NCBI GenBank assembly: GCA_036768485.1
Contig: JAVLUZ010000143.1
Coordinates: 6,732,263-6,796,262, forward strand
DNA: 64,000 nt
Origin: Mermis nigrescens
Lineage: Eukaryota > Nematoda > Enoplea > Mermithida > Mermithidae
Direction of reading: 5' to 3'
This document shows, in pieces, positions 16,103 through 54,905 of this stretch. Position 1 is the first letter of the stretch, and every line of letters starts with the position of its first letter. Position numbers and translations under genes: made by a program. The notes under the pieces were generated by a model that was not told the DNA's origin, ran no database searches, and saw only the letters and a list, made by a program, of their open reading frames with translations.

Positions 16103-16261
16103 CAGGCACGTAGCTGGCCGTCCTATTTTGGGGGGACCAACACCAATTTCGGGGGCTAAGCCCAAAATGGCCAAAAATAGCAGAAAATAAAGTCCTATTT
16201 TTCTGATTTTTTCTGAATTTTGGGGGTCTGAACCCCCCATTCCCCCAGAGATACTTGCCTG
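16103..16261 (-). mobile_element. F5 element
   Basis: Tips CAGGCACGTAGCTGGCC and GATACTTGCCTG are inverted repeats. The interior matches F5 at 61802 and 55014. Its right edge abuts LINE coding sequence directly and no flanking duplication is seen. Confidence 0.6.
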
Positions 16262-25600: not shown

Positions 25601-25864
25601 CACACCTGGGCGTGGGGGGGTTTGGAAGGTATGCACCCCGACAAACCAAAATACCCCCCCCCCTAGAAAACAAATTACCCGCTCCAGAAATTCATTTTTG
25701 AAAATGTTTTTCGTTTTTTTCCGCAATTTTTTGATGCCAATGGATAGTGCTCGATGAGGAACGTTGAAAATGGTGTTTTTCCGCCATACCACCACTTTTA
25801 AGGCTATTTTTGACCTTTGAAAAATATTGCACCTCTCTCAGAATTTCGGCGCCGCTAACCTATG
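25601..25864 (+). mobile_element. F1 MITE
   Basis: Tips CACACCTGGGCGTGGGG and CGCTAACCTATG. Flanks CTTTTGAG and CTGTTGAG match at 7 of 8. Confidence 0.82.
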
Positions 25865-31452: not shown

Positions 31453-31725
31453 CACACATGGGTGTGGGGTGTGGGTTATGCACCCCCAGAAGTTGAAATA
31501 CCCCCCCAGAAATCAAAATACCCCCACAGAAAAAATTTATTTTTGCTTTTTTTGCAATTTTTTGATGCCATTGGATAGTGCTCGACGAGAAACGTCGAAA
31601 AATGGTGTCTTTTTCGCCATACAACCACTTTTAAGACAATTTTTTGACCTTTAAAAATTTTTTCACACCCCGCCCCCCAGAAAATTTTTCACTCCTCCCC
31701 AGAATTTCGGTGCTGCCCACCTATG
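31453..31725 (+). mobile_element. F1 MITE
   Basis: Tips CACACATGGGTGTGGGG and GCTGCCCACCTATG. Flanks CGTACGTG and CGTAAGTG match at 7 of 8. It lies in the loop of the large inverted repeat. Confidence 0.85.
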
Positions 31726-34381: not shown

Positions 34382-35410
34382 TGTAAACGTAGGGCGAACC
34401 TACATTCACTTGCTTACTTATACCCGAAGCTTAAGCTCACGCGCTCGCACAAAAGGCGACTCGGGGTAAGGCCCGGCCTATCAAGATAGCCCGGCCCTCT
34501 ACTGCGCGCACCTAGTGAAACTTACTTACTTAACCCCTTTTGAGATTAAGTACCTAAATAATGTTAGTTCCCCGGAAACCTAATTGAGGGCTCAAAAAGA
34601 TTATTATTTAACTTTTTTGGGACCGAATTCCGGTGCTTGAAGATATTGAAGATTCCTAAGTATAGTGTAGCACAAGGACAGAATTCAACAGCACGGAAAT
34701 TCAAACCGAGCCCAATCATCGTTAATTAAATCATTAATTTTTACAATATTTTTGGACAGAAAATTATGAAGCAATGAAAAACGCGACAGCATGAAGATGC
34801 ATGCTGCCGACTGTCGTGTTTCGCTAATCAGTTAAAAACAACATTATAATTGTGAGGGCACGTAGCCCGCCAATGGCATACAACTATTGCCGAGATGGCA
34901 CACAAATAAAACAATAAATGCGTAAAGGTGAAAAAAGCCTGCCCACTACGCGACGAATTACTACGAGATTTTCCTGCAGCCACACAGGGGAAAACACAGG
35001 GATACTACGTGCGGAAAAATGCGTCGCACGGAAAAGAAAACAGGCACAGCATAGAAGCTGGCGAAAAACCGGAAAGCTCAATGTAAAATGAAAAATTCTT
35101 AAAGTGGGAATGATCGTAATATCGTCAAAACTGCGCTCGCACACAGTTTTTAACAATACAAAAAAGAGGCGTATCAAATGCGGACAAAGAAACGTGGAAT
35201 GGATCTACGAGAATAACAATAGGCCTATGGGCAAAGCTTACGGTAAAGAATGTACAAACGAAATAGACACGAATATGAGACACACACATATGGAGTTTTA
35301 ACACACATATGATATGATAGCACACATACCAATTCGTACTCAAGTTGCATTAAGCTCCGATTGCCCATTTTCCTATACCGGATTTTTATTGAAAATATGT
35401 GTGGGAAAGT
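34382..35410 (-). repeat. 3' LTR of element X (truncated)
   Basis: Matches the complement of 51960-52999. It starts with TGTAAACGTAGGGCG, and the match to the intact LTR stops at about 35410 (GTGTGGGAAAG), beyond which internal sequence equivalent to B position about 51255 follows. About 215 bp of LTR and 500 bp of adjoining internal sequence are therefore deleted. Confidence 0.85.
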
Positions 35411-35537
35411 ATACAGCAAAATAAAAATATACATGGAAAATAATGAATAACGGAGATATGTAAAAAGATAGTGAGAAAAAAGTGTCCTAAGGTGGAGAGA
35501 AAAAACATTGGGAAAAAAGTGGCTGCAGGAAAAGTAA
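35411..35537 (-). other. 3' noncoding part of element X
   Basis: Complement of the B segment 51120-51255. No ORF conserved between X and B. Confidence 0.6.
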
Positions 35538-36270
35538 CTAATAAACAAAAAATTTACGGAAAAAATGAATTAAACGAAAATATACAAACTGCTGGCGGTC
35601 GGTATGTTGTCCTGGCACAGCGAAATCAAATGATGAGCAAATAATCAAGTGCGGCAATCTGGTTGATCGCCGAGGCAAATACGACTGAGCGGTACGACGA
35701 CCATCAGTCGTGCGCAAATAATCTGGCATAATGCGCGACGTAGAATGAGCGTGGTTGTTTCCACGCGACGGAATAGGCGTAAAATGCGGCGCGGCAATTT
35801 GCTGCTGGACAGGATAACGATCCTGCAATTGCGTAACCGTAACGCGTGGCACAGAAACAGTCATCAGAGCTGGGCAATGCGGCGCAGCTGAACCGCAACG
35901 GCGATGATTGTCTGAACGCGACGGACGTGGACTGCGACGGCCCGAAGCAGACGGTTGGGCCGCCGGTTGAGCAGAAGTTTGCGAAGCCAATTGTTCGGCT
36001 CTGAGTGGCGCAGCGTAACTGACAACTACGTTTGACACGATTATAATGACGTTGACGCGACATAAGACGTTCGGTAGGTTGCGACCAAACGTTCGGCTGA
36101 CGAACCGTAGAAGTAATAGCAAAATTGGTAGTACGGCAAATATGGAATGATTGTGGCGTTTCCTCAATAGCCTGCATAGACCTACGGTCGTGTCGCTCTT
36201 GTTCCATGCGACGATGGCGTAAGGCGATTTGACCTTCAATAGATAAATCGACGGTAGATTGACGCAGTTT
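35538..36270 (-). pseudogene. Element X ORF5 (basic, Arg/Ser-rich protein)
   Basis: The best-preserved frame (36239-35538) has an RRHRRMEQERHDRR-like basic stretch when compared with B, then a Ser/Pro/Gln/Ala-rich linker and a conserved VTVTQLQDRYPVQQQIAAPH segment shared with B. Frameshifts relative to B occur near 36300-36400 and 36010. No known domain. The basic composition suggests nucleic-acid binding, but that is inference. At the position of the B start codon X has ACG. Confidence 0.5.
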
Positions 36271-36499
36271 AGTGGGCGGCTTGTCCGTACGAAGTCGCAG
36301 ACGCGTCGCGGTTGCTTAGACGGTTGCGAACTTCTTCTAATTGGCCTGGAAGAGTTATATCCAAGTAACCTTGGATTTGTTGGCAGTGCGGCATAGCGTG
36401 AAAAAACGAGTGGACACGTGATTGGCAGGATCCGTGCGCGATCAAATTAACTGGATTCGCTTATGCGCGGTAAATAAGTCAGTGGTTGTCTCAATAATT

Positions 36500-38224
36500 T
36501 CAGGAAACTCGACGGAAACTTCTTTTGGAAACGGATTGAAAAGCTCTTTCCACGAAAATTGATCTAAGCATATGTCGAATCTGTTTGACCATGCACCAAG
36601 CAATTTGAGGTTCTCGATACCAAAATAGGAATCTTAAAAACCGATTGTCGAGGAATTGAAGAAGTAGTGGCGCGGACATGAAAGTCGTTGATTGAAAAGA
36701 TGGAATGAAACGGAAAGTTGACTTGTATTCTTCGAAAAATTCGTTCATTGAACTGAAGATATCAGCCATTTGGCGAATTGTTAACGCCAAAGGAGCATGA
36801 ATGTCGGGCGCAGGTGTAAGACGATGTGGAAAAAATTCCGATGGAATTGTGTAGTTGGCTCGACGCACGATTTGAGGTGGTTCTAGCAACCTTGGATGAT
36901 TGGCTACGAACTCTAAACCAACTTCATAGACCATTGAACCGGTTGTGACGTAGAATCGAGTTAGACGAAAAGTTGAATTGTTGTAGAAAGGACGCGGATG
37001 TTGCGTGAATTTGCTGAGAAACGGGATTGGCAAGGCCGGTCGAATTTCGATTGACATATTTTGCGCGGATTGTTGACCGCTTAGAACAACTCAAGGCAAT
37101 GATTGTTGCTCGTTGGCCTGATATACATTGTTGAAACTAGTCAAAATACGTTCGATATATTTGTTTGCATTTGCAATTAGAGTTTCGATCAGCGGATTAG
37201 CGAATTCTTGTCCCAAAAGGTTGACAAGATGAGCTCGGAAATCTTCTGTGTACATCCGATAGGCATGTTCAGCTTCCTGGCTCACCAAGAAATCTCGTTT
37301 TTGGGCAAATTCTTGCGCTTGTTGCTTGTTAAGCAACAGTGGCGCACGTTCCTTTGGTTCTTCGTGATATTTGTCCACAACCTCTAAATCTTTGAAAAAT
37401 CTTTCGTGCACAGCCTGAGCAAATTCATCTTCCAATTTTCGAATATGATCGCTTTTTTCTTTCGTTTTGCCTTCCGGAACGATCAGATATTTGTAACTGC
37501 AAGTCGGCTGATCTTGCATCATCATTTCTTCTTCAGCTGTGATTGCTGGCTGAGATGTTTGCGGAGGCTCCGCTACATCTTCACTTGGACTTCCGGAAGC
37601 TTCGTCGACAACTTCAAAAACTTCTTCATCATAGTTGAGGGCTTCTTCCTCATTTTTGTAGACTTTATCAGGATATTTCGGCTCTGTATCTGGCCGTGAG
37701 ATGGAAGTTGGCGCACTTGTGCGCTGATCATTGTCGGTAGACGGAGGTGCAGAGACGAAAGGAGTTTGAGACAAAGATGCAGTCGATTCTTGTGACGCTT
37801 CTGGTGCTAACGTGAAAGCTGGTTGCACCATTTCGATGTCTGATTTGTTATCATCATCGTCATATTCCTCTGCGCTCTCATCGAAGCTAGAGTTAGAATG
37901 TCTACGATCACGTTTTCCCTTTTTGAATTCTTCAGCCTTTTCTTTCTTTTTCTGTTCCGCAATATCTCTGCGTTTGATTCTCTCGGCGAGCTCTGCTTTA
38001 GATTTCGCAGGCATTGAGCCGGCTTGAGCCAAAGGCATATCAAATTTTCGATCCTTTTCGACTTTCTGATTTCCGGACATTTCATCTCCGGCGAATTGCT
38101 CTCTATTGGTCGGAGCCGTTAGAGCAATATATGAGCGATCAACTGCATGACGCACTATCAAAAGATACAGATCCAGAGCACCGAGTGGATCGGTGATTAG
38201 ATATCGAACCATATGATCTGGCAA
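36500..38224 (-). pseudogene. Element X ORF3, C-terminal two thirds (exonuclease motif III, charged region, unknown domain)
   Basis: Opens with DHMVRYLITDPLGALDLYLL, the Y-x3-D third motif of a DEDDy exonuclease (Tyr codon 38201-38203, Asp 38189-38191). Next come a Lys-rich stretch (EQKKKEKAEEFKKGKRDRR, about 37950), a long acidic/Ser/Pro region (37900-37560), a helical segment rich in Glu and Gln, then, after a TGA near 37085 (Arg in copy B), a 185-residue segment with many aromatic residues (37057-36500). The last part is unknown to me. Continuous with the upstream exonuclease region in copy B. Confidence 0.65.
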
Positions 38225-39162
38225 TGGAGCTCAATTCCAAGCTTGACCTACTGCCGTTCTGGCTGACCGACAAATTTGTAGATTGAACATATACTGTAAA
38301 AGCGTTTGGAGACAATGATTTGCCAGGCGTAGTTGCTACAGTTCTGGTGAAATTTGTTGGCGAGCGGAAGAGTATCAATTATTTGAGCCTCAAACACGTT
38401 GCGTTCGAATAACTCGTGATGCCTCTGACGCTGACGGCGACTTTGCTGATAGTGTTCCCAAGCAAAAAGATGTGTCGCATACACATGAAAATATGCAATG
38501 CGGTCATTATCTGATCCGTGGCAAGCAAAGGCGACATCTGATAGTCGAATGGTGAGCAACTCATGTAGGCCAAAAGGCGGAAGTGGGAACTGTGCGACGT
38601 CCCACACAAAAACTTGACCGCGAACTGTCGCGATTTGGATGAAACGGACAAATGGACCGTTTGAATCGTGATGCGTGGCCCTTATGGCCCGATACTGATC
38701 ATCCCATTGGGAATATGGCAGAAAAACGCGATCATTAACAAACTCTGAGTCAAAGCCAAAAAGAAAACGACCATTTACGGCGTTCATCGGCGCAAGAATA
38801 GCGACAATGGCCGCATATGACTGTGCGGGCGAATCTACGAAGACTATACGGATATTGCTGGCTGGGACATATGGCGCAGTCAGTGGCGCTCTGCCAAAAT
38901 GCTCAAAATACCAATGACGTTGAGCCATGATGCGACGATAACGCTGAGGTTCAGCACGCGGGCTTACAGGCGCTATATCGGCAATGAAGCCGGCACGCCC
39001 AATATGTGGAGACTCTTGACCCGTAGGTCCTGAGCGTAGCTGCAAGCCTGCAGCTGCCGCATGCAAGGCTATGAGGAATTCTGTGACATTGGACGGCGTA
39101 TGGCCGTTGCAATTGAACTCTGGACGGTTGTTATCCAAGTTTTCTGACGGTTTGTCGGACAT
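38225..39162 (-). pseudogene. Element X ORF3, N-terminal part: DEDDy 3'-5' exonuclease-like domain
   Basis: ATG at 39162 overlaps the end of the integrase frame (which stops at 39069) in a different frame. Residues 130-270 carry the order expected of the RNase D/WRN exonuclease fold. Motif I is LFGFDSEF (residues 135-141; Asp138 at 38749-38751, Glu140). Then come FVRFIQIATVRGQVFVWDV (beta strands), motif II ACHGSDNDRIAYF (213-225), and a VFEAQIIDTL strand. Motif III is in the next frame at 38224. Motifs I to III keep the acidic residues and tyrosine needed for two-metal catalysis. A frameshift lies near 38350-38230. The preceding 110 residues are unassigned. Such nucleases remove nucleotides from 3' ends of RNA or DNA. 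The substrate here is unknown. Confidence 0.75.
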
Positions 39163-40494
39163 AGTTGAGTAAAATAGTGTTCTGAAAAAGGGTAAACGTT
39201 ATTTAGGGGAACTGCATGATTAGATTTAGACATAACGAGTAGATGGACGGGAACGCATTCCTTTTTATGGCGTTCACTAGCCGGTAATTCTGAGAAATCT
39301 ATGACTATCCCAGGGCAGACGGGACGACGTGGGACCTGAACTAGTACGATATCGCCTGGAATATATGCGCGTTTCTCCGAAATTAAATCGGAAAATGGCA
39401 ATTTTGGCGATTGCAATAACCTATTTTGATGAACTAAGTGAGTCACGAGCGGATTGTGAATATAGACAATCCGAGCTGTTTCGGAAGTTGGCAGTTCAGT
39501 GATGCGATATGGACCCACTTGCTTAGGAGCAAGTTTGCCTTGGTTCGACGGAATAACTGCTTTGTTATTCAGATAAACAATATCGTTAACCGAAAAAGTT
39601 GTTTCGGAAACATTTTTATCATATTGTCGCTTCTGATGCATACGCGCTTTCGCTAAATTAGTGGCTGCAGCCTCGTGTAAGTCACGTAGGGAGTGAACTA
39701 GGCTGGCTAAGTACGCTTCAACTTGGTTAGACGATTCAGGGTCAAGGGTTAAATCATTCAAGATTTGAATATCTAACGGAAAAGATGGCTCTCGACCATA
39801 AAGTAAGACAAATGGCGATAAATTTGTCGAGGCTTGAGGCGTTGCTCGATAAGCAAACAATGCAAATGGGAGATACTGTTCCCAATCATATTGATCACGA
39901 GCAGTTAGCTTCGATAAACAGTCAATCAATGTTTGATTATACCTCTCAACCAAACCATCACATTGGGGATGGTACGGTGTTGTAAAATTTTCTGGATATG
40001 CAATATTTTGCATATTTCAGAAACTAACGTTGATGTAAAATTCGATCCTTGATCTGTCAAAAAACGTCTAGGCACTCCGTGTCTGGGTATAATTTCACGA
40101 AGCAAAAGATTTGCGATCGTAGTAGCTTTTATGTCCGAAACAGGATATGCTTCTACATATTTCGTGAAATAATCCATGAAAACTACAACTTGATCATTTC
40201 CAGAGATAGATTTTGGCATGTGAAGACAATCACATGCGATGAGATCAAAAGGAGCACTAACTTCAATCGGTTTTAGGGGTACCAATGCTGGAATTGACGA
40301 AATCTTACGTTGCAGACATGTATGGCAATTTTCGCACCATGCAATGACATCGTTTTCCATTCTTGGCCACCAATATCTCATTTGGATATTGGGCAAAATT
40401 TTTCGGGCTGAGAAATGAGCACCAAGAATTGAGTCATGAAATTCTGATAGGATAAAACGACGTAGAGATTTAGGTATGACGAGTTGATAGATGA
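39069..40494 (-). pseudogene. Element X integrase (5'-truncated)
   Basis: Contains the zinc-binding end (WCENCHTCL), the catalytic core with IACDCLHMPKS (first Asp), RRFLTDQGSNF (second Asp) and YHPQCDGLVERYN (Glu), and a C-terminal part with QVGPYRITEL, the GPY/F motif of Ty3/Gypsy integrases. One frameshift lies at about 39990-40010, just before YHPQCDG. The coding sequence breaks at 40494 where copy B's LTR fragment begins, inside the HHCC zinc finger. The C-terminal frame extends to 39069, past the start of ORF3. Confidence 0.88.
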
Positions 40495-40923
40495 CTTTAA
40501 TAATTTTTTATTTACATTGAGCTTTTCGGTTTTTCGCCAGCTTCTATGCTGTGCCTGTTTTCTTTTCCGTGCGACGTATTTTTTGCACATAGTATCCCTG
40601 TGTTTTTCCCCTGTGTGGCTGCAGGGAAATCTCGTCGTATCTCGTCACATAGTGGGCAGGCTTTTTCGCCCTTACGCATTTATTGTTTTATTTGTGTGCC
40701 CTCACGGCAATAGTTGTATGCCGTTGGCGGGCTACGTGCCCTCGCAATTATAGTGTTGTTTTTAACCAATTAGCGTAACATGACAGTCGGCAGCATACAT
40801 CTTCATGCTGTCGCGTTTTTCATTGCTTCATAATTTTCTGTCCAAAAGTATTGTAAAAATTAATTATTTCATTAACAATGATTTGGACTCGGTTCGGTTC
40901 CAATGTAAACGCTTGCGTTTACA
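40495..40923 (+). repeat. 5' LTR remnant of element B
   Basis: 429 bp that match 52285-52675 of the 3' LTR and then jump to the LTR end. The beginning (about 540 bp) is lost at the deletion junction, and about 320 bp after CTCGGTTCG are missing. The rejoined end CAATGTAAACGCTTGCGTTTA (split here at 40910-40921) is a perfect inverted repeat. Confidence 0.8.
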
Positions 40924-41183
40924 TTGGAGGTCATTCACGACGACTGGCCGAGCTAACATCATTTCATTTTCTGCCCAAAAAATTTTTTCAAAATATTTCC
41001 ACTTTGTGTAACCATATTGTGTTCGTGTGCATTCTTAAAATTTCACTATTTGTGTGCATTTTTCACTCTATTGTGTTCATGTGCATATTTTTCTTGGTCG
41101 AGATTGGGGTTGTGACATAAATTTTTGTCTGATCTTAATCTCAATTTGTCTGTCATGCCAGGCAAAAAAACTAGCAGGAAAAA
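40924..41183 (+). promoter_or_regulatory. Leader and probable primer-binding site of element B
   Basis: TGGAGGTCATTCACGACGAC begins at 40925, one base after the LTR end, where an LTR element's tRNA primer site is expected; copy X has the same sequence at 53644-53663 (complement). I could not match it to a specific tRNA. The rest of the leader is AT-rich and conserved in X. Confidence 0.55.
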
Positions 41184-42951
41184 TGACCAAAACTGGGAGA
41201 AAAACCCCAGATAAGTCGCCTAAGCAGGCTAATACAAATGTGAATAATACAAATATGAATGACACAAATGTGAATCGGATAACCAAAAATGGCAATTCAA
41301 ATAATCTCTTGAATGCGATGTTCAGCGCATATGCAAGATTTGGAAAATCGGCTTGAACATATAGCCGTTGAACATGTGCATGCACAGTTGCAAAATGCAA
41401 ATTCTGCAAACCCTGATTTGCAGCCTGTTGAGCCGCAACCGGTGCCCAACGTCACTGCAAACGCGGACCAGCAGCATTTAGCTCGCTTTGCAAATGCTGA
41501 CTCGGATTCGTGCGTGCAGCTTGCAACGTCAACGCCAGTCCGTCGTTCGTCCATTCCAGTGCTTCCTAATCAGCAAATCGCCTCACGTTTATTGCGTCCT
41601 ACTGTTTCTGTAAGCGCTGAGCAGCAACATTTAGCTCGTTTTGCAAATGTTGAACTGTCTCCGCGAGTACAGATCGTTTCGCCAGCCGTTCAGCCGGCCA
41701 CGAACCAAGCTAATCCCGTAAATGCTGAACTTCCGCCACTTCATGCGATGCATATTCCACAGAATCAAATTTTCGTGCCAAATACAGGTGCATCAATCCC
41801 GCTGGATCAGAACCCACCTCGAAATCAACAGAATCGAAAAGTTCATTATCCGGATCAAGCTACTGACTCTCCGCCGGAAAGTCCAAGGCGTCATGGATCT
41901 TCTTCAAGACGTTCATGGCGTCGTCACCGTGACACATCGTCTGATAGCTCAGAGAATACAGGTATTTGCTACCTAGCTGATTCTATGAATTGAGGTCCAT
42001 TTTTGCAACAAATTCAGTACACAATAGCCAATAAGAAGTTTTTTCAGGGTGAAAAAGCAGATATTCGTGGATTTTTTCATGAACTTGAGCGGATTAGCAA
42101 ATGGCTATAGAATTGATGAAAGATCGTGTCTAGATTTGTTGCCATCATTTTTCGATACCTATACGACTAGATTGTTTTGCTCCATACCCAACGACGTTCG
42201 CGGAATCTTATGAACTCACAAAACAAGCATTAATTGCAGAGTTTCGGCCTATCGACTCAGATACATTGTTTGATAGATTTCTTGAGCAAAAACAGCACCC
42301 ATCAGAGTCTGTGAACGCTTATTTTTTGGCGTTACGCAAAGATCTCATTCGAGCTCAACCAGAAATTCAAGTTGACTTCGATAGCTTTTGAGAAAATGCT
42401 CCGTCATCAGCTCAGAAAAGGGATGAACCCAGATATCGTGAGAAAAGCTTACAAAAGAGCGCATGAAGCACCGCTTCAAGATTTTCTTCATGCTGCGCGG
42501 TGTATAGAGTTTGCGAACCTACAGTATGCTTCAGCTAAGCAGCCTACGCCGTATTTACCAGCAACTGCCGCTGCAGTATCCAGTAGCGTGTTGCCAAAAA
42601 ATAATTTTCGGCGTTCAACGTATAGTCAAAATGAGACCCCCACCCCGTCAATCTGCGTCTTTTCGTCAATCGCGTCCAGAGACATCTAATGCTTTAGCGC
42701 AACATTATTGCGTGTATTGCAAACACATGGGCCACACCAGAGATGAATGTTTTCGGCGTCAGCAAAACAACAACCAAAATTACCGCAACAGCGAAGCTCA
42801 CAATCCTAGTGAGTATGCGAATCGATACTGTAGCCAACCTAGGCCAATGTTTCAAAACAATCCATCATCGTGGCGATCGAACTACCGTACTCTGTATAAT
42901 TCTCGTGTGTTTTCAAAACTCACAGTATCCGTCTACGTCTCAAAATTATGA
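41184..42951 (+). pseudogene. Element B gag
   Basis: Starts MTKTGRKTPDKSPKQAN at 41184, conserved in X. A frameshift near 41310 leads into the frame 41313-41993, rich in Gln/Pro/Asn. The capsid-like region 42030-42530 is broken by stops and frameshifts but retains FLEQKQHPSESVNAYFLALR, the pattern of the Retrotrans_gag domain. A CCHC zinc knuckle, YCVYCKHMGHTRDECF, follows at about 42707-42754, then an Asn/Gln/Arg-rich tail. Non-functional. Confidence 0.85.
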
Positions 42952-43159
42952 CTCCCGTCAAGATTTTTGACGTCCGAGCAATGATTTTTGGCAAAATTAC
43001 GGTAATCGCCAGAACTACCGTAATCCTTACAGTAACACGCGATACTATGACAATGAAAGAAATATGTTTGCAAATAATCGTTTTGCAGAACATTCTCAGA
43101 ATTATCGCCAGCCGAATAACGCGTATTGACAATTTCCGCAGCAATCTGTGCGTTCTAAC

Positions 43160-43400
43160 CACACATGGGCGTGGGGTTTGGGGGCATGCACCCCCCAGAA
43201 GTCGAAATACCCCCCCCAGAAAAAATTTTTTTTGCTTTTTTTAGCAATTTTTTGATGCCATTGAATAGAGCTTGATGAGAAACGTCGAAAATGGTGTTTT
43301 TTCGCCATACCACCATTTTTAAGGCCATTTTTGACCTTTAAAAATTTTTTCACCCCCAGAAATTTTTCACCCCCCAGAATTTTGGTGCTGCCCACCTATG
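43160..43400 (+). mobile_element. F1 MITE inserted in gag of element B
   Basis: Tips CACACATGGGCGTGGGG and GCTGCCCACCTATG. Flanks GTTCTAAC (43152-43159) and GTTCTAGC (43401-43408) differ by one base. The insertion is younger than element B. Confidence 0.93.
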
Positions 43401-43408
43401 GTTCTAGC

Positions 43409-44037
43409 CCCCGGCAGTTACGTATTCGGTATCATCCACACCCACCATTACGTTTCCCCCACCGCAACCGACCCAACCGTCATCTAATAACGAAAACTTT
43501 GTAACTTCGTCTGTCTCGACTTCCGAAAATTTGGAACAGCTTTTTGCATCTCAAGCTTTTCTCGAGGAATATCATTGTTTACAGAAACGTTTAGCAGTCT
43601 ACAGAAAGCTAAACTCGCAAGTCAAAACTCAGGATGCAGCTAATAAACCCGTTGTTAGCCATGCATCTACGAATTTGCCTACAATTTTAGCAGAAATCAA
43701 CGGAATAAAGCTCCCTGCGTTAATTGACACAGGATCGCAAGTCACAATGATGACCACAAGCGCTTTTCTGCGTTTAGGTTTCAAATTGCCACCAAAGCAA
43801 GCAGCGCATGTTGTTCATGGAATTGGAAAAATGACAGCAACCGTGCGTTTCACCTATATCATGCATATCACAGTCGCAGAACAAACCACTCCGGCTGTTG
43901 TTTTAGTCATCGATGACTTACTGGAAGATTTGCTTTTAGGCTTCGATTTTTGCAAACAAGCTTTACTTTTTGTCAACACAGTTGAAGTATTGTGCTTTTG
44001 CCAATGGTTTTCGTGTCGAATTACTATCCGCAAATGA
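43409..44037 (+). pseudogene. Element B gag-pol junction and retropepsin-like protease
   Basis: After a short Pro-rich tail of gag, the frame from 43531 contains LPALIDTGSQVTMM (active-site Asp at 43726-43728), a flap-like HGIGKM segment and LLEDLLLGFDF, the hydrophobic-Gly-Asp motif of retropepsins. It would cut the Gag-Pol polyprotein as a dimer. The frame is left near 43975 for the RT frame. Confidence 0.85.
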
Positions 44038-45079
44038 CAAAAAGCATTTACGCGTCAACCCTGATGCGCAAACAGCGTGTCCGGTTTGTGCTCGCGTAAC
44101 TGTTACCGAATCTATTGTCATTCAACCGCGTCACGAAGTTGTGACGCCCGGATATGTTTGTTATGGTCAATTCAACGACAAAATTGCTCTTTTTGAACCT
44201 GATAATGACTTCATGTTAAGCAAATCACTGTTTGTCGCACCAGCTATCATCGACACATCAGTTCCTGTTTTCCCACTTCGCGTCTGTAACACGTCTAAAT
44301 CACCTATCACTATAGATATTGGAGAATTCATAGGTTCTTTAACGACTGAAGCTGAAATTGTGTCTCATGTCGCCCTATCAGACGATAGAGCACTCGAACT
44401 TTTTGCTTTGATCAACAAAGCCTTAAATGGTTCGGCAATAAATGCTCATCAGCAACAGCAGGTTCGTGATCTGTGTCAGCATTACTCTTCAATTTTTGCC
44501 TTAAAAGGAGAACCCTTAGGCCGAACGCCACTCCTAAAGCATCATATCGATACAGGTGATAGTCCGCCTATCACAGGAAAGACATATCGCGTCGAACATT
44601 CGCGTCAAAAAGCGATGCAAGCAGTTATCAACAAAATGTTAGCTGATAAAGTGATTCGTCCAACTACAAGCCCATGGGCTAGTCCGTTATTCCTAATCGG
44701 TAAAAAGGATGGTTCTTTGCGTCCAGTTGTAGACTATCGTCGCCTAAATGAAGTGACTAAGACCCAAGTGTATCCGTTACCTCAAATCGAAGATTATTTC
44801 GATGCTCTCGGATTGGCAGCGTATTTTTCTACACTAGATCTCAAATCAGGTTATTGGCAAATCCCGTTAGATAAAGAATCACGGGAGAAAACAGCTTTCA
44901 TTTGCCCTGTCGGTCACTATGAATTCAATGTGTTACCTTTTGGTCTCAAAAATGCGCCAGCAGATATTCAGCGCTTAATGGAATTAGTTCTAGCAGGACT
45001 AAACTGGAACAAATGCCTAGTTTACATCGACAATATCATAGTTTTTCTCGAACTTTCCCAGAACATCTTCAAGACCTAG
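43970..45079 (+). pseudogene. Element B reverse transcriptase with YIDN active site
   Basis: Ty3/Gypsy RT motifs in order: HHIDTGDSPPI, SPWASPLFLIGKKDGSLRPV, VDYRRLNEVT, YFSTLDLKSGYWQIPL, EFNVLPFGLKNAPA, and VYIDNIIVF. The catalytic YxDD box is YIDN here, the last Asp codon being AAT (45032-45034), so this copy cannot polymerise DNA. A frameshift near 45050 leads to the RNase H frame. Confidence 0.88.
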
Positions 45080-45837
45080 AGAAAGTTTTTAAGGCTCTAA
45101 ATGACACAGATTTGCGCATTAAGCTGGACAAATGCCATTTTGCCCACAACAAAGTGCAATTTTTAAGGCATAGAATTAGTTCTTTTGGGATCGCACCAGA
45201 CCCAACGAAAGTTGCAGATGTACGAAGTTTTCCGACTCCGAAAAATGTGAAAGGCGTACAAAAATTCCTTGGCCTTGTCCATTGGTTCAAAAAGTTTGTA
45301 AAAGCTCTCGCAAAAGTAGCTAAGCCACTTTTCAACTTATTGCAAAAAGATATACCTTTTGTTTGGACTGAAAAGCATCAAGAAGCTTTCGAAAAAATCA
45401 AGGATGCTTTCACTTCTCCGCCAATCTTGCAATTGCCAAAGTTTGACGACAAACATCAGTTCATATTGACAACTGATGCCAGCAACTATGCTTTAGGTGC
45501 AATTCTTACCCAAAAGCATCTGCCGTCGGGTAATTGCTTCATACTCAGCTATGCAAGCCGCGTCTTGAATTCCGCTGAGTGCAATTATGCCACGTCAGAG
45601 AAAGAAGCTCTAGCCGTTGTGTGGGCGATTAAATACTATTGTCACTATCTCTACGGTACAGAGTTCGTGGTTGAAACAGACCACCAAGCTTTAACATGGC
45701 TAGTAAACGTCAAAGACCCGTCTAGTTGTCTTTGAAGATGGGGACTCAAGCTTCAAGAATACACGTATAAAATTGTGTATGTCCCCGGCGCATATAATTG
45801 TGCCGCCGATTTACTTTCGCGTCACCCCAAAGTATGA
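45013..45837 (+). pseudogene. Element B RT thumb and RNase H
   Basis: Continues RT (KCHFAHNKVQFLRHRISSFG, FLGLVHWFKKF) into RNase H: ILTTDASNYALGAIL, NYATSEKEALAVVWAIKYY and VETDHQALTWL hold the expected acidic residues. A TGA at 45733-45735 interrupts it; beyond it the same frame resumes with WGLKLQEYTYKIVYVPGA and ADLLSRHP, the usual end of this domain. Confidence 0.85.
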
Positions 45838-47613
45838 TGAAAATGAGCGAAAGTATAAAGCTGAAAGAAAAGCAGTTGTGAACCTAGCTAATCTAGAATC
45901 CGAAAAGTCAGAGTCGGAAGAGGATGATAATCCGCCCGACATACCTACCACGTCAAAAGCGAATAGAAATGTACCACCGGTATATTATGAAAGAAATATG
46001 CTGACAGATGCAGAAAAAGCAGAAATGCTAACGCCAGCTAAACTGTTGGCAGAACAACGACTTGACCCTGAAATCGTCAAACTCCGCGACTCTCTCGATG
46101 ATCTTTCCGAGAAGAAGTATAGCGATGAATTTTTTGTCAGTCAAGATCTACTTTTTTGATGTTTTCAACCCAAACGTAGCCCACAAGTCATCTATCAACT
46201 CGTCATACCTAAATCTCTATGTCGTTTTATCCTATCAGAATTTCATGACTCAATTTTTGGTGCTCATTTCTCAGCCCGAAAAATTTTGCCCAATATCCAA
46301 ATGAGATATTGGTGGCCAAGAATGGAAAACGATGTCATGGCATGGTGTAAAAATTGCCATACATGTCTGCAATGTAAGATTTCGTCTATTCCAGCATTGG
46401 TACCCCTAAAACCGATTGAAGTTAGTGCTCCTTTTGATCTCATTGCATGTGATTGTCTTCACATGCCAAAATCTATCTCTGGAAATGATCAAGTTGTAGT
46501 TTTCATGGATTATTTCACGAAATATGTAGAAGCATTTCCTGTTTCGGACATAAAAGCTACTACGATTGCAAATCTTTTGCTTCGTGAAATCATACCTAGA
46601 CACGGAGTGCCTAGACGTTTTTTGACAGATCAAGGATCCAATTTTACATCAACGTTAGTCTCTGAAATATGCAAAATTTTGCATATCCAGAAAATTTTTA
46701 CAACACTGTACCATCCCCAATGTGATGGTTTGGTTGAGCGTTATAATCGAATGTTGATTGACTGTTTATCGAAGCTAAGTGCTCGTGATCAATATGATTG
46801 GGAACAGTATCTCCCATTTGCGTTGTTTGCTTATCGAGCAACGCCTCAGGCCTCGACGACATTTATCGCCATTTGTCTTACTTTATGGTCGAGAGCCATC
46901 TTTTCCATTAGATATTCAAATCTTGAATGATTTAACCCTTGATCCCGAATCATCTAACCAAGTTGAAGCGTATTTAGCCAGCCTAGTTCACTCCTACGTG
47001 ACTTACACGAGGCTGCAGCCACTAATTTAGCGAAAGCGCGTATGCATCAGAAGTGACAATATGATAAAAATGTTTCCGAAACAACTTTTTCGTTAACGAT
47101 ATTGTTTATCTGAATAACAAAGCAGTTATTCCTTCGAACCAAGGCAAGCTTGCTCCTAAGCAAGTAGGTCCGTATCGTATCACCAAATTGCCAACTTCCG
47201 AAACAGCTCGGATTGTCTATATTCACAATCCGCTCGTGACTCACTTAGTTCATCAAAATAGGTTATTGCAATCACCAAAATTGCCGTTTTCCGATTTAAT
47301 TTCTGAGAAACGCGCATATATTCCAGGCAATATCATACAAGTTCAGGTCCCACGTTGTCCCGTTTGTCCTGGGATAGTCATAGATTTCTCAGAATTACCG
47401 GCTAGTGAACGCCATAAAAAGGAATGTGTTCCCATCCGCTTACTCGTTATGTCTAAGTCCAATCATGTGGTTCCCCTAAATAACGTCTACCCTTTTTCAG
47501 AACCCTATTTTACTCAACTATGTCCAACAAACCGTCAGAAAACTTGGATAACAACCGTCCAGAGTTCAATAGCAATGGCCATACGCCGTCCAATGTCACA
47601 GAATTCCTCATAG
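45838..47613 (+). pseudogene. Element B linker and integrase
   Basis: An acidic linker (ESEKSESEEDDNPPD) precedes the HHCC zinc finger (EFHDSIFGAH, CKNCHTCL, frame-shifted at about 46165-46290) and a core with ACDCLHMPKS, RFLTDQGSNF and HPQCDGLVERYN. A frameshift near 46860 and others near 47040-47100 separate it from the GPY/F-bearing C-terminus (QVGPYRI at about 47165). The DDE residues are intact although the reading frame is not. Confidence 0.88.
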
Positions 47614-50230
47614 CCTTGCATGCGGCAGCTGCACACTTGCAGCTACGCTTAGGACCTACGGGTCAAGAGTCTCCATATGTTGGGCGTGCCGGCTTCATTG
47701 CCGATATAGTGCCTGTAAGCCCGCGTGCTGAACCTCAGTGTTATCGTCGCATCATGGCTCAACGTCATTGGTATTTTGAGCATTTTGGCAGAGCGCCACT
47801 GACTGCGCCATATGTCCCAGCCAGCAATATCCGTATAGTCTTCGTAGATTCGCCTGCACAGTCATATGCGGCCATTGTCGCTATTCTTGCACCAATGAAC
47901 GCCTTAAATGGTCGTTTCCTTTTTGGCTTCAACTCAGAGTTTGTTAATGATCGCGTTTTCTTGCCATACTCCCAATGGGATGATCAATATCGGGCCATAA
48001 GGGCCACACATCATGACTCAAACGGTCCATTTGTCCGTTTCATTCAAATTGTGACAGTTCGCGGTCAAGTTTTTGTGTGGGGCGTCACACAGTTCCCACT
48101 TCCGCCTTTTGGCCTACATGAATTGCTCACCATTTGACTATCAGATGTCGCCTTTGCTTGCCACTGATCAGATAATGACCGCATTGCGTATTTTCATGTG
48201 TATGTGACATGTCTTTTTGCTTGGGAACACTATCAGCAAAGTCGCCGTCAGCGTCAGAGGCATCACGAGTTATTCGAACACAATGTGTTCGAGGCTCAAA
48301 TAATTGATACTCTTCCGCTCGCCAATAATTTCACGAGAACTGTGGCAACCACCTCGGGAAATTATTGTCTCCAAATGCTTTTACAGTATATGTTCAATCT
48401 ACAAATTCGTCGGTCAGACAGAACGGCAGTAGGTCAAGCTTGGAATCGAGCTCCGTTGCCAGATCATATGGTTCGATATCTAATCACCAATTCACTCGGT
48501 GCTCTGGATCTGTGTCTTTTGATAGTGCATCATGCAGTAGATTGCTCATATATCGCTCTATCAGCTCCAACCAATGAAGAGCAATTCGCTGGAGATGAAA
48601 TGTCCGGAAATCAGAAAGTCGAAAAGGATCAAAAGTTTGATATGCCTTTGGCTCAAGCCGGCTCAATGCCTGCAAAATCTAAAGCAGAGCTCGCCGAGAA
48701 AATCAAATGCAGAGATATTGCAGAACAGAAAAAGAAAGAAAAGGCTGAAGAATTCAAAAAGGGAAAACGTGATCGTAGACATTCTAACTCTAGCTTCGAT
48801 GAGAGCGCAGAGGAATATGACAATGATAATAATGAATCAGACATCAAAATGGTGCAACCAGCTTTCACGTTAGCACCAGAAGCGTCGCAAGAATTGACAG
48901 CATCTCCGTCTCAAGCTCCTTTCGTCTCTGCACCTCCATCTACCGACGATGATCAGCGCACAAGTGCGCCAACTTCCGTCTCACGGCCAGATACAGAGCC
49001 GAAATATCCTGATAAAGTCTACAAAAATGAGGAAGAAGCCCTCGACTATGATGAAGAAGTTTTTGAAGTCGTCGACAAAGCTTCTGGAAGTCCAAGTGAA
49101 GATGTAGCGGAGCCTCCGCAAACATCTCAGCCAGCAATCACGGCTGAAGAAGAAATGATGATGCAAGATCAGCCAACTTGCAGTTACAAATATCAGATTG
49201 TTCCGGAAGGCTAAACGAAAGAAAAAGCGATCATATTTGAAAATTGGAAGACAAAGTTGCTCAAGCCGTCCACGAAAGAGTTTTCAAAGATTTAGAGGTT
49301 GTGAACAAATATCACAAAGAACCAAAGGAACGTGCGCCACTGTCGCTTAATAAGCAACAAGCGCAAGAATTTGCCCAAAAACGAGATTTCTTGGTGAGCC
49401 AGGAAGCTGAACATGCCTATCGGATGTACACAGAAGATTTTCGAGCTCATCTTATCAATCTTTTAGGACAAGAATTCGCTAATCCGCTGATCAAAACTCT
49501 AATTGTGAATGCAAACGAATATATCAAACGTATTTCGACTAGTTTCAACAATGTATATCAGGCCAATGAGCAACAATCATTGCCTAGAGTTGTCTTTAGC
49601 GGTCAACAATCCGCGCAAAATATGTCAATCGAAATTCGACCGGCCTTGCCAATCCCATTTCTCAGTGAATTCACGCAACATCCGCGTCCTTTCTACAATG
49701 ATTCGACTTTTCGTCTAACTCAATTCTATGTCACGACCGGTTCAATGGTCTATGAAGTTGGCTTAGAGTTCGTAGCCAATCATCCAAGGTTGCTAGAACC
49801 ACCTCAAATCGTGCGTCGAGCCAACTACACAATTCCATCGGAATTTTTTCCGCATTGTCTTACGCCTGCGCCCAACATTCATGCTCCTTTGGCGTTAACA
49901 ATTCGCCAAATGGCTGATATCTTCAGTTCAATGAACGAATTTTTCGAAGAATACAAGTCGACTTTTCGTTTCATTCCATCTTTTCAATCAACGACTTTCA
50001 TGTCAGCGCCACTACTTCTTCAATTTCTCGACAATCGGTTTTTAAGATTCCTATTTTGGTATCGAGAACCTCAAATTGCTTGGCGCATGGTCGAACAGAT
50101 CCGACGTATGCTTAGATCAATTTTTGTGGAAAGAGCTTTCAATCCGTTTCCAAAGAAGTTTTTGTCGAGTTTCCTGAAATTATTGAGACAACCACTGACT
50201 TATTTACCATGCATAAGCGAATCCAGTTAA
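47520..50230 (+). pseudogene. Element B ORF3: exonuclease-like domain plus charged and unknown regions
   Basis: About 900 codons starting at the ATG at 47520, overlapping the integrase end in another frame. It shows that the two X fragments form one long ORF: exonuclease motif I (here FGFNSEF, Asp to Asn at about 47931), motif II region (about 48160-48200), VFEAQIIDTL (about 48288), then NRAPLPDHMVRYLITNSLGA (about 48447-48506). The latter matches the (W)xRPL...Yx3D end of RNase D-type domains, with Asp to Asn. Then Lys-rich, acidic and helical parts follow. TGA stops at 48135 and about 48165, a stop at 49212, and a frameshift near 49230 break it. The C-terminal 200 residues have no family I recognise. 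Confidence 0.72.
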
Positions 50231-50241
50231 TTTGATCGCGC

Positions 50242-51028
50242 ATGGATCCACCAATCACGTGTCCACTCATTTTTCCACGCTATGCCGCACGACAACAAAT
50301 CCAAGGTTACTTGGATATAACTCTTCCAGGCCAATTAGAAGAAGTTCGCAACCGCCTAAGCAACCGCGACGCGTCTGCGACTTGTACGGACAAGCCGCCC
50401 ACTAAATTGCGTCAATCTACCGTCGATTTATCTATTGAAGGTCAAATCGCCTTACGCCGTCGTCGCATGGAACAAGAGCGACGCGACCGTAGGTCTACAC
50501 AGGCTATTGAGGAAACGCCACAATCATTCCATATTTGCCATACTACCGATTTCGCTATTACCTCTACGGTTCGTCAGCCGAACGTTTCGTCTCAACCTAC
50601 CGAACGTCTTACGTCGCGTCAATGTCATTATAATTGTGTCGAACGTAGTCGTGAATTACGCCGCGCCACTAGAGCCAAACGATCAGCTTTGCAAGCTTCT
50701 GCTCAACCGGCGGCCCAACCGTCTGCTTCGGGCCATCGCAGTCCACGTCCGTCGCGTTTAGACAATCATCGCCGTCGCGATTCTGCTGCTGCCGCATTGC
50801 CCAGCTCTGATGACTGTTTCTGTGCCACGCGTTACGGTTACACAATTGCAGGATCGTTATCCTGTCCAGCAGCAAATCGCCGCGCCGCATTTTACGCCTA
50901 TTCCGTCACGTGGAAACAACCGCGCTCATTCTACGTCGCGCATTACGCCAGATTATTTGCGCACGACTGACGGTTGTCGTACCGCTCAGTCGTATTTGCC
51001 TCGCGATCAACCGGATTGCCGCACTTGA
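50242..51028 (+). pseudogene. Element B ORF5 (basic protein)
   Basis: Reads MDPPITCPLIFPRYAARQQI, then LRRRRMEQERRDRR, a Ser/Pro/Ala-rich middle, and after a frameshift near 50800 the VTVTQLQDRYPVQQQIAAPH segment also found in X. The basic N-terminal half suggests RNA or DNA binding. The ATG corresponds to ACG in X, so the true start may differ or the frame may be fed from ORF3 by frameshifting. Function unknown. Confidence 0.5.
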
Positions 51029-51749: not shown

Positions 51750-52999
51750 TGTAGAGATGGCTCTACACCCCATTTTTGTTGCGTTGGTTCAACGCGAAAT
51801 TCCATTTGTTTTGTGCTATGTTGTACTTACATGCCAATGACTGTTTGCCCCAGATGCTCAAATTCGTGCTTGATTTCCATTTGCACGTACGCGACCACTC
51901 AGCGTAATGCTTTAGTGTGTCGCCCGGGACCACCTTCCCTCTTAAAATTATCATATCTTCATTTCCTTTCCCACACATATTTTCAATAAAAATCCGGGAT
52001 AGGAAAATGGGCACTCGGGCTTAATACAACTTGAGTACGAATTGGTATGTGTGCTATCATATCATACGTGTGTTAAAACTCCATATGTATGTGTCTCATA
52101 TTTGTGTCTATTTTGTTTGTACATTCTTTACCGTAAGCTTTGCCCATAGGCCTATTGTTATTCTCGTAGATCCATTCCGCGTTTCTTTGTCCGCGTTTGA
52201 TAAGCCTCTTTTTTGTATCGTTTAAAACTGTGTGCGAGCACAGTTTTGACGATATTACGATCATTCCTCCACTTTAAGAATTTTTCATTTTACATTGAGC
52301 TTCCCGGTTTTTCGCCAGCTTCTATGCTGTGCCTGTTTCCTTTTCCGTGCGACGTATTTTTCTGCATGTAGTATCCCTGTGTTGTTCCCCTGTGTGGCTG
52401 CAGGGAAATCTCGTCGTATCTCGTCGCGTAGTGGGCAGGCTCTTTCTCGCCCTTACGCATTTATTGTTTTATTTGTGTGCCTTCACGGCAATAGTTGTAT
52501 GCCGTTGGCGGGCTACGTGCCCTCACAATTATAGTGTTGTTTTTAACCAATTAGGGTAACACGACAGTCGGCAGCATGCATCTTCATGCTGTCGCGTTTT
52601 TCATTGCTTCATAATTTTCTGTCCAAAAGTATTGTAAAAATTAATTATTTAATGAACGATGCTTGGGCTCGGTTCGAATTTCCGTGCTGTTGAATTCTGT
52701 CCTTGTGCTACACTATACTTAGGAACCTTCAATATTTTCAAGCACAGGAATTTGGTCCCAAAACAAGTTAAATAATAATCTTTTTGAGCCCTCAATTAGG
52801 TTTCCGGGGAACTTACATTATTTAGGTACTTAATCTCAAAAGGGGTTAAGTAAGTAAGTTTCACTAGGTGCGTGCAGTAGAGGGCCGGGCTATCTTGATA
52901 GGCCGGGCCTTACCTCCGAGTCACCTTTTGTGCGAGCGCGTGAGCTTTAGCTAGGGTTAAGTAAGCACGTGAGTGTAGAGCTGCGGCCCTACACTTACA
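51750..52999 (+). repeat. 3' LTR of element B (1250 bp)
   Basis: Runs from TGTAGAGATGGCTCTACA, itself a 7-bp inverted repeat around ATGG, to CCCTACACTTACA. TGTA/TACA tips are inverted. Contains a hairpin AAACTGTG/CACAGTTT (52225-52246) and a GC-rich dyad GGGCTATC-TT-GATAGGCC (about 52885-52905). The copy is complete and defines the LTR. Confidence 0.9.
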
Positions 53000-53663: not shown

Positions 53664-54905
53664 TGTAAACGTAGGGCGAACCTACGTTCACTTGCTTACT
53701 TAACCCGAGCTTAAGCTCACGCGCTCACACAAAAGGCGACTCGGGGTAAGGCCCGGCCTATCAAGATAGCCCGGCCCTCTACTGCGCGCACCTAGTGAAA
53801 CTTACTTACTTAACCCCTTTTGAGATTAAGTACCTAAATAATGTAAGTTCCCCGGAAACCTAATTGAGGGCTCAAAAAGATTATTATTTAACTTGTTTTG
53901 GGACCGAATTCCGGTGCTTGAAAATATTGAAGGTTCCTAGGTATAGTGTAGCACAAGGACAGAATTCAACAGCACGGAAATTCAAACCAAGCCCAATCAT
54001 TGTTAATTAAATAATTAATTTTTACAATATTTTTGGACAGAAAATTATGAAGCAATGAAAAACGCGACAGCATGAAGATGCATGCTGCCGACTGTCGTGT
54101 TACGCTAATCGGTTAAAAATAACACTATAATTGTGAGGGCACGTAGCCCGCCAACGGCATACAACTATTGCCGTGAAGGCACACAAATAAAACAATAAAT
54201 GCGTAAGGGCGAAAAAGCCTGCCCACTACGCGACGAAATACGACGAGATTTTCCTGCAGCCACACAGGGGAAAACACAGGGATACTACGTGCGGAAAAAT
54301 GCGTTGCACGGAAAAGAAAACAGGCACAGCATACAAGCTGGCGAAAAACCGGGAAGCTCAATGTAAAATGAAAAATTCTTAAAGTGCGGAATGATCGTAA
54401 TATCGTCAAAACTGCGCTCGCACACAGTTTTAAACGATACAAAAAAGAGGCGTATCAAACGCGGACAAAGAAACGCGGAATGGATCTACGAGAATAACAA
54501 TAGGCCTATGGGCAAAGCTTACGGTAAAGAATGTACAAACGAAATAGACACGAATATGAGACACACACATATGGAGTTTTAACACACGTATGATATGATA
54601 GCACACATACCAATTCGTACTCAAGTCGCATTAAGCCCGAGTGCCCATTTTCCTATCCCGGATTTTTATTGAAAATATGTGTGGGAAAGGAAATGAAGAT
54701 ATGATAATTTTAAGAGGGAAGGTGGTCCCGGGCGACACACTAAAGCGTTACGCTGAGTGGTCGCATACGTGCAAATGGAAATTAAGCACGAAATTGAGCA
54801 TCTGGGGCAAACAGTCATCGGCATGTATGTTCAACATAGCACAAAACGAATGGAATTTCGCGTTGAACCAACGCAACGAAAATGGGGTGTAGAGCCATCT
54901 CTACA
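53664..54905 (-). repeat. 5' LTR of element X (1242 bp)
   Basis: Full-length complement of 51750-52999. The right edge reads TGTAGAGCCATCTCTACA, the mirrored LTR tip, and is followed by TTAC, the target duplication also present at 34378-34381. Confidence 0.92.

What the first reader, a model, noticed from the sequence alone, without database searches (positions are those of the whole stretch)
37091..39162. DEDDy 3'-5' exonuclease-like domain encoded after integrase in a Ty3/Gypsy retrotransposon
The ORF that follows integrase, where env or nothing is expected, has the three exonuclease motifs in order. Motif I is FGFDSEF (Asp138, Glu140). Motif II is ACHGSDNDRIAYF. Motif III is RYLITD (Tyr-x3-Asp) preceded by an NRAPLPDHM segment in copy B, like the RPL...Y-x3-D end of RNase D and WRN-type domains. 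The strand pattern between motifs (FIQIATVRGQVFVWDV, VFEAQIIDT) also fits. Two copies in opposite orientations carry it, so it belongs to the element. A 3'-5' nuclease could trim primer or cDNA ends, proofread, or counter host RNA; none of these is shown. I know of no Gypsy lineage described with it.
Basis: partly seen in the sequence, partly recalled or inferred. Interest (0 to 1): 0.9.

Follow-up and report, generated by a model that had tools for sequence, protein, structure and literature searches.

The report
Nematode retrotransposon carrying an exonuclease gene
A family of virus-like jumping genes in what is probably the genome of the insect-parasitic worm Mermis nigrescens carries, after its integrase, a long gene for an RNase D-like 3'-5' exonuclease, a kind of cargo already described in rotifer elements; it matters because this genome holds copies in which the gene is unbroken, so what such a nuclease is for can be tested.

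Summary
The exonuclease reading holds. Both window copies are broken, and Pfam finds no exonuclease in them or in an intact relative of their own family. The home genome decides it: 131 matching places, six with an unbroken 1181-aa frame, and three further related families. In ten aligned domains motif I (D,E) and the motif III D are invariant; the motif II D is lost in two rows and motif III Y is His in family F4. A profile of these domains matches other post-integrase ORFs at hhalign E 1.9e-19, and those pass Pfam's cut-off for PF01612 (best 3.6e-10). dN/dS of the domain is 0.14 (F2/F3) and 0.11 (within F3). A nematode-type splice acceptor precedes the ORF3 ATG, suggesting a spliced mRNA, as for Cer1's CERV.

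Different here: a nematode host (inferred), a long multi-part ORF3, no dUTPase found, and related elements whose integrases end in a PWWP domain. Activity and substrate are untested; the structure prediction failed. Verdict: real, a new variant of a known kind.

The parts
38356..39162 (-). Copy A, ORF3 N-terminal part (269 codons from ATG): N-region plus exonuclease motifs I, II and IDT
   Evidence: same domain in an open frame in L112, L113, L115, L120
38740..38760 (-). Motif I FGFDSEF (D138, E140)
   Evidence: D/E invariant in alignment A2 of 10 ORF3s
38503..38523 (-). Motif II CHGSDND (last D = D220)
   Evidence: D220 in 28 of 30 F1 loci; N in 2 of the 10 A2 sequences (L121, L126)
38371..38382 (-). 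IIDT strand between motifs II and III
   Evidence: DTL invariant in A2
38189..38206 (-). Motif III RYLITD (Y-x3-D), in a shifted frame in copy A
   Evidence: Y in 30 of 30 and D in 26 of 30 F1 loci
37091..38230 (-). Copy A ORF3 middle: motif III, then acidic/low-complexity linker and further sequence; ends at a stop
   Evidence: compare A5
36500..37090 (-). Copy A ORF3 C-terminal conserved region
   Evidence: conserved across families; synonymous excess reached by 1 of 2000 null draws
39182..39189 (-). TTTTTCAG, nematode-type 3' splice acceptor just upstream of the ORF3 ATG
   Evidence: TTTTNCAG in 27 of the 27 F1 loci (of 30) with a recognisable start
39072..40016 (-). Copy A integrase C-terminal part; overlaps the start of ORF3 in another frame
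39138..39356 (-). PWWP-like end of integrase (sub-threshold)
   Evidence: PF00855 E 2.3e-4, 22 bits against cut-off 25.6
34382..35409 (-). Copy A 3' LTR (part)
   Evidence: 96.4% to 53664-54689; end TTTACA
40494..40923 (+). Copy B 5' LTR remnant
43408..44037 (+). Copy B aspartic protease frame
   Evidence: PF13650 E 4.3e-12
43940..45735 (+). Copy B reverse transcriptase and RNase H, two frames
   Evidence: RVT_1 9.3e-24, RT_RNaseH_2 4.4e-32
46160..47613 (+). Copy B integrase, in broken frames (H2C2, rve core, C-terminal part with weak PWWP)
   Evidence: PF17921 6e-19; PF00665 1.4e-11; PF00855 0.043
47493..47500 (+). Copy B TTTTTCAG upstream of the ORF3 ATG at 47520
47520..50230 (+). Copy B ORF3, in broken frames (47520-48137, 48168-49214, 49241-50230); motif I FGFNSEF at 47922-47942
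50236..50970 (+). Copy B, C-terminal extension of ORF3 (part of the 1169-aa frame in intact copies)
51750..52999 (+). Copy B 3' LTR, about 1.25 kb, TGTAGAG...TTACA
53664..54905 (-). Third copy: LTR, followed by a short internal piece (to about 53354)

Best explanation
ORF3 of this Ty3/Gypsy-type element encodes a member of the RNase D-like DEDDy 3'-5' exonuclease family, followed by an acidic linker and a second conserved region for which I found no match. It is probably translated from a spliced (or trans-spliced) subgenomic mRNA, because a TTTTNCAG acceptor sits just before its ATG inside the end of pol. I think it most likely is an active accessory nuclease of the element that trims or degrades RNA 3' ends, either its own RNA or host small/aberrant RNAs, rather than an envelope. 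Shown here: homology, conserved catalytic residues, selection, association with the same integrase lineages. Inferred: expression by splicing, catalytic activity, RNA as the substrate.
For: 131 genomic places, 6 with a 1181-aa open frame. Ten ORF3 domains from four families, chosen as open frames: motif I D/E and motif III D invariant. Among 30 F1 loci, the two window copies included: D138 28, E140 30, D220 28, Y320 30, D324 26. Profile chain: F1 to the 42% families E about 2e-60; A2 (F1-F4) to A6 (class II/III) hhalign E 1.9e-19, score 146.4 against at most 22.3 in 30 column shuffles; A6 to seven DEDD enzyme sequences from the PDB E 1.2e-8, 65.2 against 17.5; A2 to the same directly 29.4 against 19.4 (alignments). 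PF01612 over its cut-off in 5 of 5 class II/III ORFs scanned. dN/dS in the domain 0.138 (F2/F3, dS 1.9) and 0.110 (F3/F3b, dS 0.30). Integrase and exonuclease trees agree on F2+F3 and on class III. TTTTNCAG in 27 of 27 F1 starts, 3 of 3 F2 and 4 of 4 F3 loci and one F4 locus; 0.008 expected per 40 nt, but the families are related. Cer1 CERV is a precedent for a spliced 3' ORF in a nematode element (PMC10309623, abstract start and passages seen).
Against: No PF01612 hit at E<=10 for the window's own family, broken or intact; only 3 of 10 members of A2 hit it at E<=1, best 0.0061, below cut-off. PDB sequence searches with two window pieces and with A2 found no nuclease. The direct A2-to-DEDD match has an hhalign probability of only 14-22%, and F2/F3 alone give E 0.078 over the C-terminal half. 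AlphaFold model unusable, pLDDT 32.9. Two F3 copies have N at the motif II D and F4 has H for motif III Y. The F1/F2/F4 site also reads as a C CCT TTT heptamer in the pol frame, so -1 frameshifting could make a pol-ORF3 fusion instead; F3 lacks the strict heptamer. PF[SAT][ED] is conserved in the protein, which could by itself keep the TTTTNCAG string. No TTTNCAG within 150 nt before the first in-frame ATG in 8 of 8 class II/III loci (in L141 and L145 that ATG lies deep inside the frame, so the test is weak there). No expression or activity data.
Confidence: 0.62

Rival explanations
1. The domain is a catalytically weak or dead DEDD fold kept for RNA binding or assembly, with the long C-terminal part doing the work (for example RNA export, like CERV of Cer1).
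For: Motif II D is N in two F3 copies and motif III Y is H in F4; ORF3 has about 800 further residues, part of them conserved, with the C-terminal region under the clearest constraint between the window copies. PMC5408684 (passages seen) notes Maelstrom and EXD1 as inactive DEDD derivatives that keep RNA binding; CERV is encoded by a spliced mRNA and is required for RNA export (PMC10309623).
Against: Motif I D/E and motif III D are invariant in 10 of 10 A2 sequences; in the domain dN/dS is 0.11-0.14.
Confidence: 0.2
2. The nuclease acts on the element's own cDNA or primer ends (trimming, proofreading).
For: Encoded next to integrase and found with the same integrase lineages; the WRN exonuclease, which acts on DNA ends by established knowledge, is the weak best PDB match of a class II ORF3 (E 0.0051).
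Against: ORF3 is a frame of its own, not fused to pol, in the locus read (L083); no substrate evidence.
Confidence: 0.22
3. ORF3 is an env-like or unrelated gene and the three motifs are coincidence.
For: Position after integrase; no direct Pfam exonuclease hit for the window's family; pairwise alignments with single DEDD enzymes are weak.
Against: Profile chain with shuffled controls, PF01612 over cut-off in relatives, invariant acids.
Confidence: 0.03

Closest known systems
Juno and Vesta LTR retrotransposons of bdelloid rotifers (Rodriguez, Kenefick, Arkhipova 2017, PMC5408684)
   Same: LTR retrotransposons with PR-RT-RH-IN order and an RNase D-like DEDDy exonuclease as ORF3; the authors suggest RNA 3'-end processing or a silencing-related role and say that catalytic activity is yet to be demonstrated.
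   Different: Theirs contain a dUTPase between PR and RT and LTRs of 159-551 bp, and no chromodomain was found (section 3.1). Here: LTR about 1.25 kb, no dUTPase hit in the frames scanned, ORF3 of 1169-1297 aa in F1-F3, PWWP or PWWP-like integrase ends in part of the families, nematode host (inferred). Sequence relatedness of the two ORF3s was not tested (no rotifer sequence at hand).
Cer1 of Caenorhabditis elegans with CERV (PMC10309623)
   Same: Nematode Gypsy/Ty3 element with a large non-env ORF after pol, made from a spliced mRNA with a TTTCAG acceptor (passages).
   Different: CERV is required for genomic RNA export and has no obvious homology outside Caenorhabditis; the word exonuclease does not occur in the held main text.
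RNase D / Rrp6 (EXOSC10) / WRN / MUT-7 exonucleases (PF01612)
   Same: Same motifs and order; profile match of related ORF3s.
   Different: Element-encoded and very divergent, with inserts between motifs I and II and after motif II; the window family alone falls below detection.
Terminons (Athena Penelope-like giant retroelements)
   Same: Carry DEDDy exonuclease ORFs (PMC6431247 passages).
   Different: A different retroelement class, without LTRs or DDE integrase (recalled).

Membership tests
DEDDy 3'-5' exonuclease (PF01612, RNase D-like) | Motif I D-x-E | tested here: met
   FG[FY]DSE in 10 of 10 A2 sequences; copy B has D->N
DEDDy 3'-5' exonuclease (PF01612, RNase D-like) | Motif II catalytic D | tested here: met
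   8 of 10 A2 sequences D, 2 N; 28 of 30 F1 loci
DEDDy 3'-5' exonuclease (PF01612, RNase D-like) | Motif III Y-x3-D | tested here: met
   Y and D in F1-F3; H-x3-D in F4
DEDDy 3'-5' exonuclease (PF01612, RNase D-like) | Profile match over the curated cut-off | tested here: inconclusive
   Not for the window's family; F2 E 0.0061, below cut-off; met for class II/III relatives, which a profile of F1-F4 matches at E 5.6e-12 to 5.2e-5 and 1.9e-19 by hhalign
DEDDy 3'-5' exonuclease (PF01612, RNase D-like) | RNase H-like DEDD fold | tested here: inconclusive
   AlphaFold of the copy A piece, pLDDT 32.9
DEDDy 3'-5' exonuclease (PF01612, RNase D-like) | Metal-dependent 3'-5' nuclease activity | not testable with these tools
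   needs a bench assay
Ty3/Gypsy LTR retrotransposon | PR-RT-RNase H-integrase order, H2C2/rve integrase | tested here: met
Ty3/Gypsy LTR retrotransposon | LTRs | tested here: met
   about 1.25-kb repeats TGTAGAG...ACA; target-site duplications were not established for these truncated copies
Ty3/Gypsy LTR retrotransposon | RT phylogeny | not tested
   no reference set at hand
Juno/Vesta lineage | dUTPase between PR and RT | tested here: not met
   no dUTPase at E<=10 in the PR and RT frames of copy B; feature from PMC5408684 section 3.1
Juno/Vesta lineage | DEDDy ORF3 after pol | tested here: met
Cer1/CERV | 3' ORF expressed by splicing | tested here: inconclusive
   acceptor-like site conserved, no RNA data; no sequence comparison with CERV was made

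The most novel reading that the evidence does not exclude
In this nematode a large Gypsy radiation couples an integrase that carries its own PWWP chromatin reader with an element-encoded DEDDy nuclease made from a spliced mRNA; the nuclease works as a counter-silencing effector that degrades host small RNAs or their precursors, much as the arenavirus exonuclease serves to suppress host immune signalling, while the PWWP end steers integration to H3K36-methylated genes without a host tether such as LEDGF.
Probability: 0.15. Interest if true: 0.85.

Novelty: new variant of a known kind. Interest (0 to 1): 0.52.

Why it matters
DEDDy ORF3s in LTR retrotransposons were known from rotifers and unexplained. 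Finding them in what is probably a nematode, in several families with long open ORFs and purifying selection, makes it likely that they serve the elements, and points to a host phylum with rich small-RNA biology in which to ask what for. The PWWP ends of related integrases would make chromatin targeting of integration testable from insertion sites.

Tried and rejected
Chance resemblance: rejected on the profile chain and shuffled controls. Env: no env-type Pfam hit in the ORF3 pieces and full ORF3s scanned; transmembrane prediction was not run. Window pieces against Pfam, PHROGs, NCBIfam and the PDB gave no exonuclease and no credible hit. Protein database: 0 of 914 candidates (copy A exonuclease piece) and 0 of 750 (copy B C-terminal piece) at E<=1; 0 of 7997 scored candidates at E<=0.01 with A6, which did not return known RNase D-type enzymes either, so absence there says little. 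Viral-contig scans found no relative. I therefore have no example from another species.

A home-made RNase D profile scored copy B's motif II-III piece above 1000 of 1000 shuffles (8.5 against a maximum of 5.7) but did not see copy A (A_exo reached by 345 of 1000 shuffles, A_III by 415) and gave no hit for copy B's motif I piece. Pairwise scores (2000 shuffles each): copy B piece with EXOSC10 part 46, reached by 8; with RRP6 part 34, by 123; with RNase D 25, by 1313; copy A piece with RNase D 37, by 145; with EXOSC10 part 33, by 258. Structure prediction unusable. Simple dN/dS between copies A and B (exonuclease part 0.25, motif III plus middle 0.42, C-terminal 0.20; 2.27 for the 59 codons around motif III, which rest on 12 changes) was replaced by a spectrum-matched null (null draws reaching the observed synonymous count, from A and from B, of 2000 each: exonuclease part 23 and 46; middle 175 and 289; C-terminal 1 and 1). 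-1 frameshifting was considered and kept open.

Among what these showed me, PMC5408684 is the source for DEDDy ORF3s in LTR elements; PMC6338049, PMC6431247 and PMC5718144 cite or repeat it (passages). For PWWP inside a retrotransposon integrase I saw titles and abstract starts only (15 of 503 papers listed, 17 of 17, 15 of 28) and passages of PMC11244446; none describes it. Of PMC3985635 and PMC10989877 I saw passages.

Full report
What is in the window. Copy A (minus strand, about 34382-40497) and copy B (plus strand, about 40494-52999) are two copies of one LTR retrotransposon, 94.5% identical over a 5.1-kb alignment; a third LTR with a short internal piece lies at about 53354-54905. LTRs are about 1.25 kb, TGTAGAG...ACA. 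Copy B shows, in broken frames, protease, RT, RNase H, then H2C2 and rve integrase domains: the Gypsy order. After integrase comes ORF3, starting in another frame inside the end of pol. Both window copies of ORF3 are dead: frame change and stops in A; stops plus D->N in motifs I and III in B. Of 163 substitutions between the two copies in 2895 aligned bases of this stretch, 144 are transitions.

Home genome. G000 has 523,963,438 bases in 860 contigs. The published Mermis nigrescens assembly has 524,220,005 bp in 867 scaffolds (PMC10989877, passages); I infer that host from these numbers only. The copy A piece of ORF3 finds 131 places (a lower bound), six of them with a 1181-aa open frame, and a second set near 42% identity with stop-free frames of up to 1304 aa. 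Natural frames give four families: F1 (the window's; 1169 aa from the first M), F2 (1242 and 1201), F3 (up to 1297), F4 (748 and 857 aa, incomplete). Of the 20 stretches fetched, 11 entered the first alignment and 10 entered A2; the other nine were left out as near-duplicates, shorter or broken. In A2, FG.DSE, IQ, W187, CH, DTL, GNH.L.TL, GQ.WN..PL and M.R.L..D are invariant.

Is it used? F2 against F3 gives dN/dS 0.138 (dS 1.9, near saturation) and F3 against F3b 0.110 over the domain, and 0.235 for the rest of ORF3 in F3/F3b; F1-F2 and F1-F4 in the domain, and F2-F3 in the rest, are saturated at synonymous sites. Between the decayed window copies, synonymous changes exceed a spectrum-matched null in the exonuclease part (null reaches it in 23 of 2000 draws from A, 46 from B) and the C-terminal part (1 and 1), not in the middle (175 and 289). 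The catalytic residues are kept in 26-30 of 30 F1 loci, window copies included, where the average site is 95.5% conserved, so that set alone does not show special constraint. Integrase and exonuclease trees of seven sequences agree on the F2+F3 pair and on class III; which of F1 and F4 lies nearest to classes II/III differs, with supports 0.855 and 0.813. The exonuclease diverges faster than the integrase (45% against 73% identity for F1-F2). This fits one old acquisition followed by co-inheritance, but three classes are too few to exclude repeated capture.

How it is probably made. In 27 of 30 F1 loci the start was recognisable, and 27 of these 27 have TTTTNCAG within 40 nt upstream; 3 of 3 F2 loci, 4 of 4 F3 loci and, by eye, one F4 locus (L154) have it 4-19 nt before the ATG. 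UUUUCAG/R is the nematode acceptor consensus (recalled), and Cer1's CERV uses TTTCAG (PMC10309623 passages). The same stretch is a -1 slippery heptamer in the pol frame in F1 and F2, and by eye in F4, but not in F3, and it codes for a conserved PF[SAT][ED], so the signal is suggestive, not proof. In the F4 stretch L128 the exonuclease frame is out of register with that ATG (by eye). Class II/III loci show no TTTNCAG before their first in-frame ATG (0 of 8); in L134, L141 and L147 ORF3 starts after the end of the integrase frame.

The integrase end. Class III integrases end in a PWWP domain over Pfam's cut-off (E 9e-14, 1.5e-11, 1.6e-13). The window's family has a diverged version (2.3e-4 in copy A, 0.043 in copy B, 5.1e-4 in L083), F4 likewise (0.001), all below cut-off; F2 and F3 show no PWWP hit at E<=0.1, though the end aligns by eye. 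The genome has at least 109 PWWP places over cut-off (150 of 460 candidates scored), a good part in frames of about 1700-1780 aa. 25 of the 109 are followed within 2 kb on the same strand by a PF01612 place; 22 of the 46 PF01612 places over cut-off have a PWWP upstream; gaps of the 25 links run from 408 to 765 bp. By eye, nine of the 150 scored rve places have a PWWP place about 630 bp downstream.

Known or new. DEDDy ORF3s in LTR retrotransposons are known from bdelloid Juno and Vesta (PMC5408684), and DEDDy ORFs from Terminons (PMC6431247). This is therefore a new variant of a known kind: it differs by the tests listed (no dUTPase found, longer LTR, long ORF3, PWWP-type integrase ends in part of the families) and probably by phylum. 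I did not compare sequences with the rotifer ORF3s. In the listings and passages I saw, no paper describes these nematode elements or a PWWP domain within a retrotransposon integrase (open-licence papers only, listings capped).

Mechanism. Most likely an active nuclease acting on RNA 3' ends (0.62 for an active accessory exonuclease; the choice of RNA, and of own or host RNA, is weaker). Against: no activity data, a failed model, altered motif residues in some copies. The rivals (inactive RNA-binding or export role; cDNA-end trimming) are open and separable by the tests listed.

Noticed in passing
L141:3-974, L147:2-1135, L145:3-860; window 39138-39356: Integrases of related Gypsy families end in a PWWP chromatin-reader domain (PF00855 E 9e-14, 1.5e-11, 1.6e-13); at least 109 PWWP places over cut-off in the genome; the window element has a diverged, sub-threshold version.
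   Followed up: partly
L134, L137, L142, L146 (class II) and L141, L144, L145, L147 (class III): Other post-integrase ORF families of the same genome carry a DEDDy domain that passes the PF01612 cut-off, so the cargo is not limited to the window's family.
   Followed up: partly
36500-37090, 49241-50230: The conserved C-terminal region of ORF3 has no credible match: copy A piece none in Pfam, PHROGs, NCBIfam; copy B piece only Caulimovir_coat_dom at E 0.14 in Pfam and nothing in the protein database.
   Followed up: partly
39186-39192: C CCT TTT heptamer in the pol frame at the pol/ORF3 overlap, a possible -1 frameshift site, overlapping the acceptor-like TTTTTCAG.
   Followed up: partly
5118-5201, 10329-10412, 12358-12441, 19054-19137, 25707-25790, 31538-31621, 43228-43311, 60450-60533: Short interspersed repeat (eight of the nine copies of family D4); one lies in copy B between the gag and protease frames.
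   Followed up: no
16232-18819 and 19746-21748: Two non-LTR reverse transcriptase remnants by eye; the second has a Cys/His-rich PHD-finger-like stretch.
   Followed up: no
5500-6690: Tandem repeat array with a period near 54 bp (26 overlapping matches, family D1).
   Followed up: no
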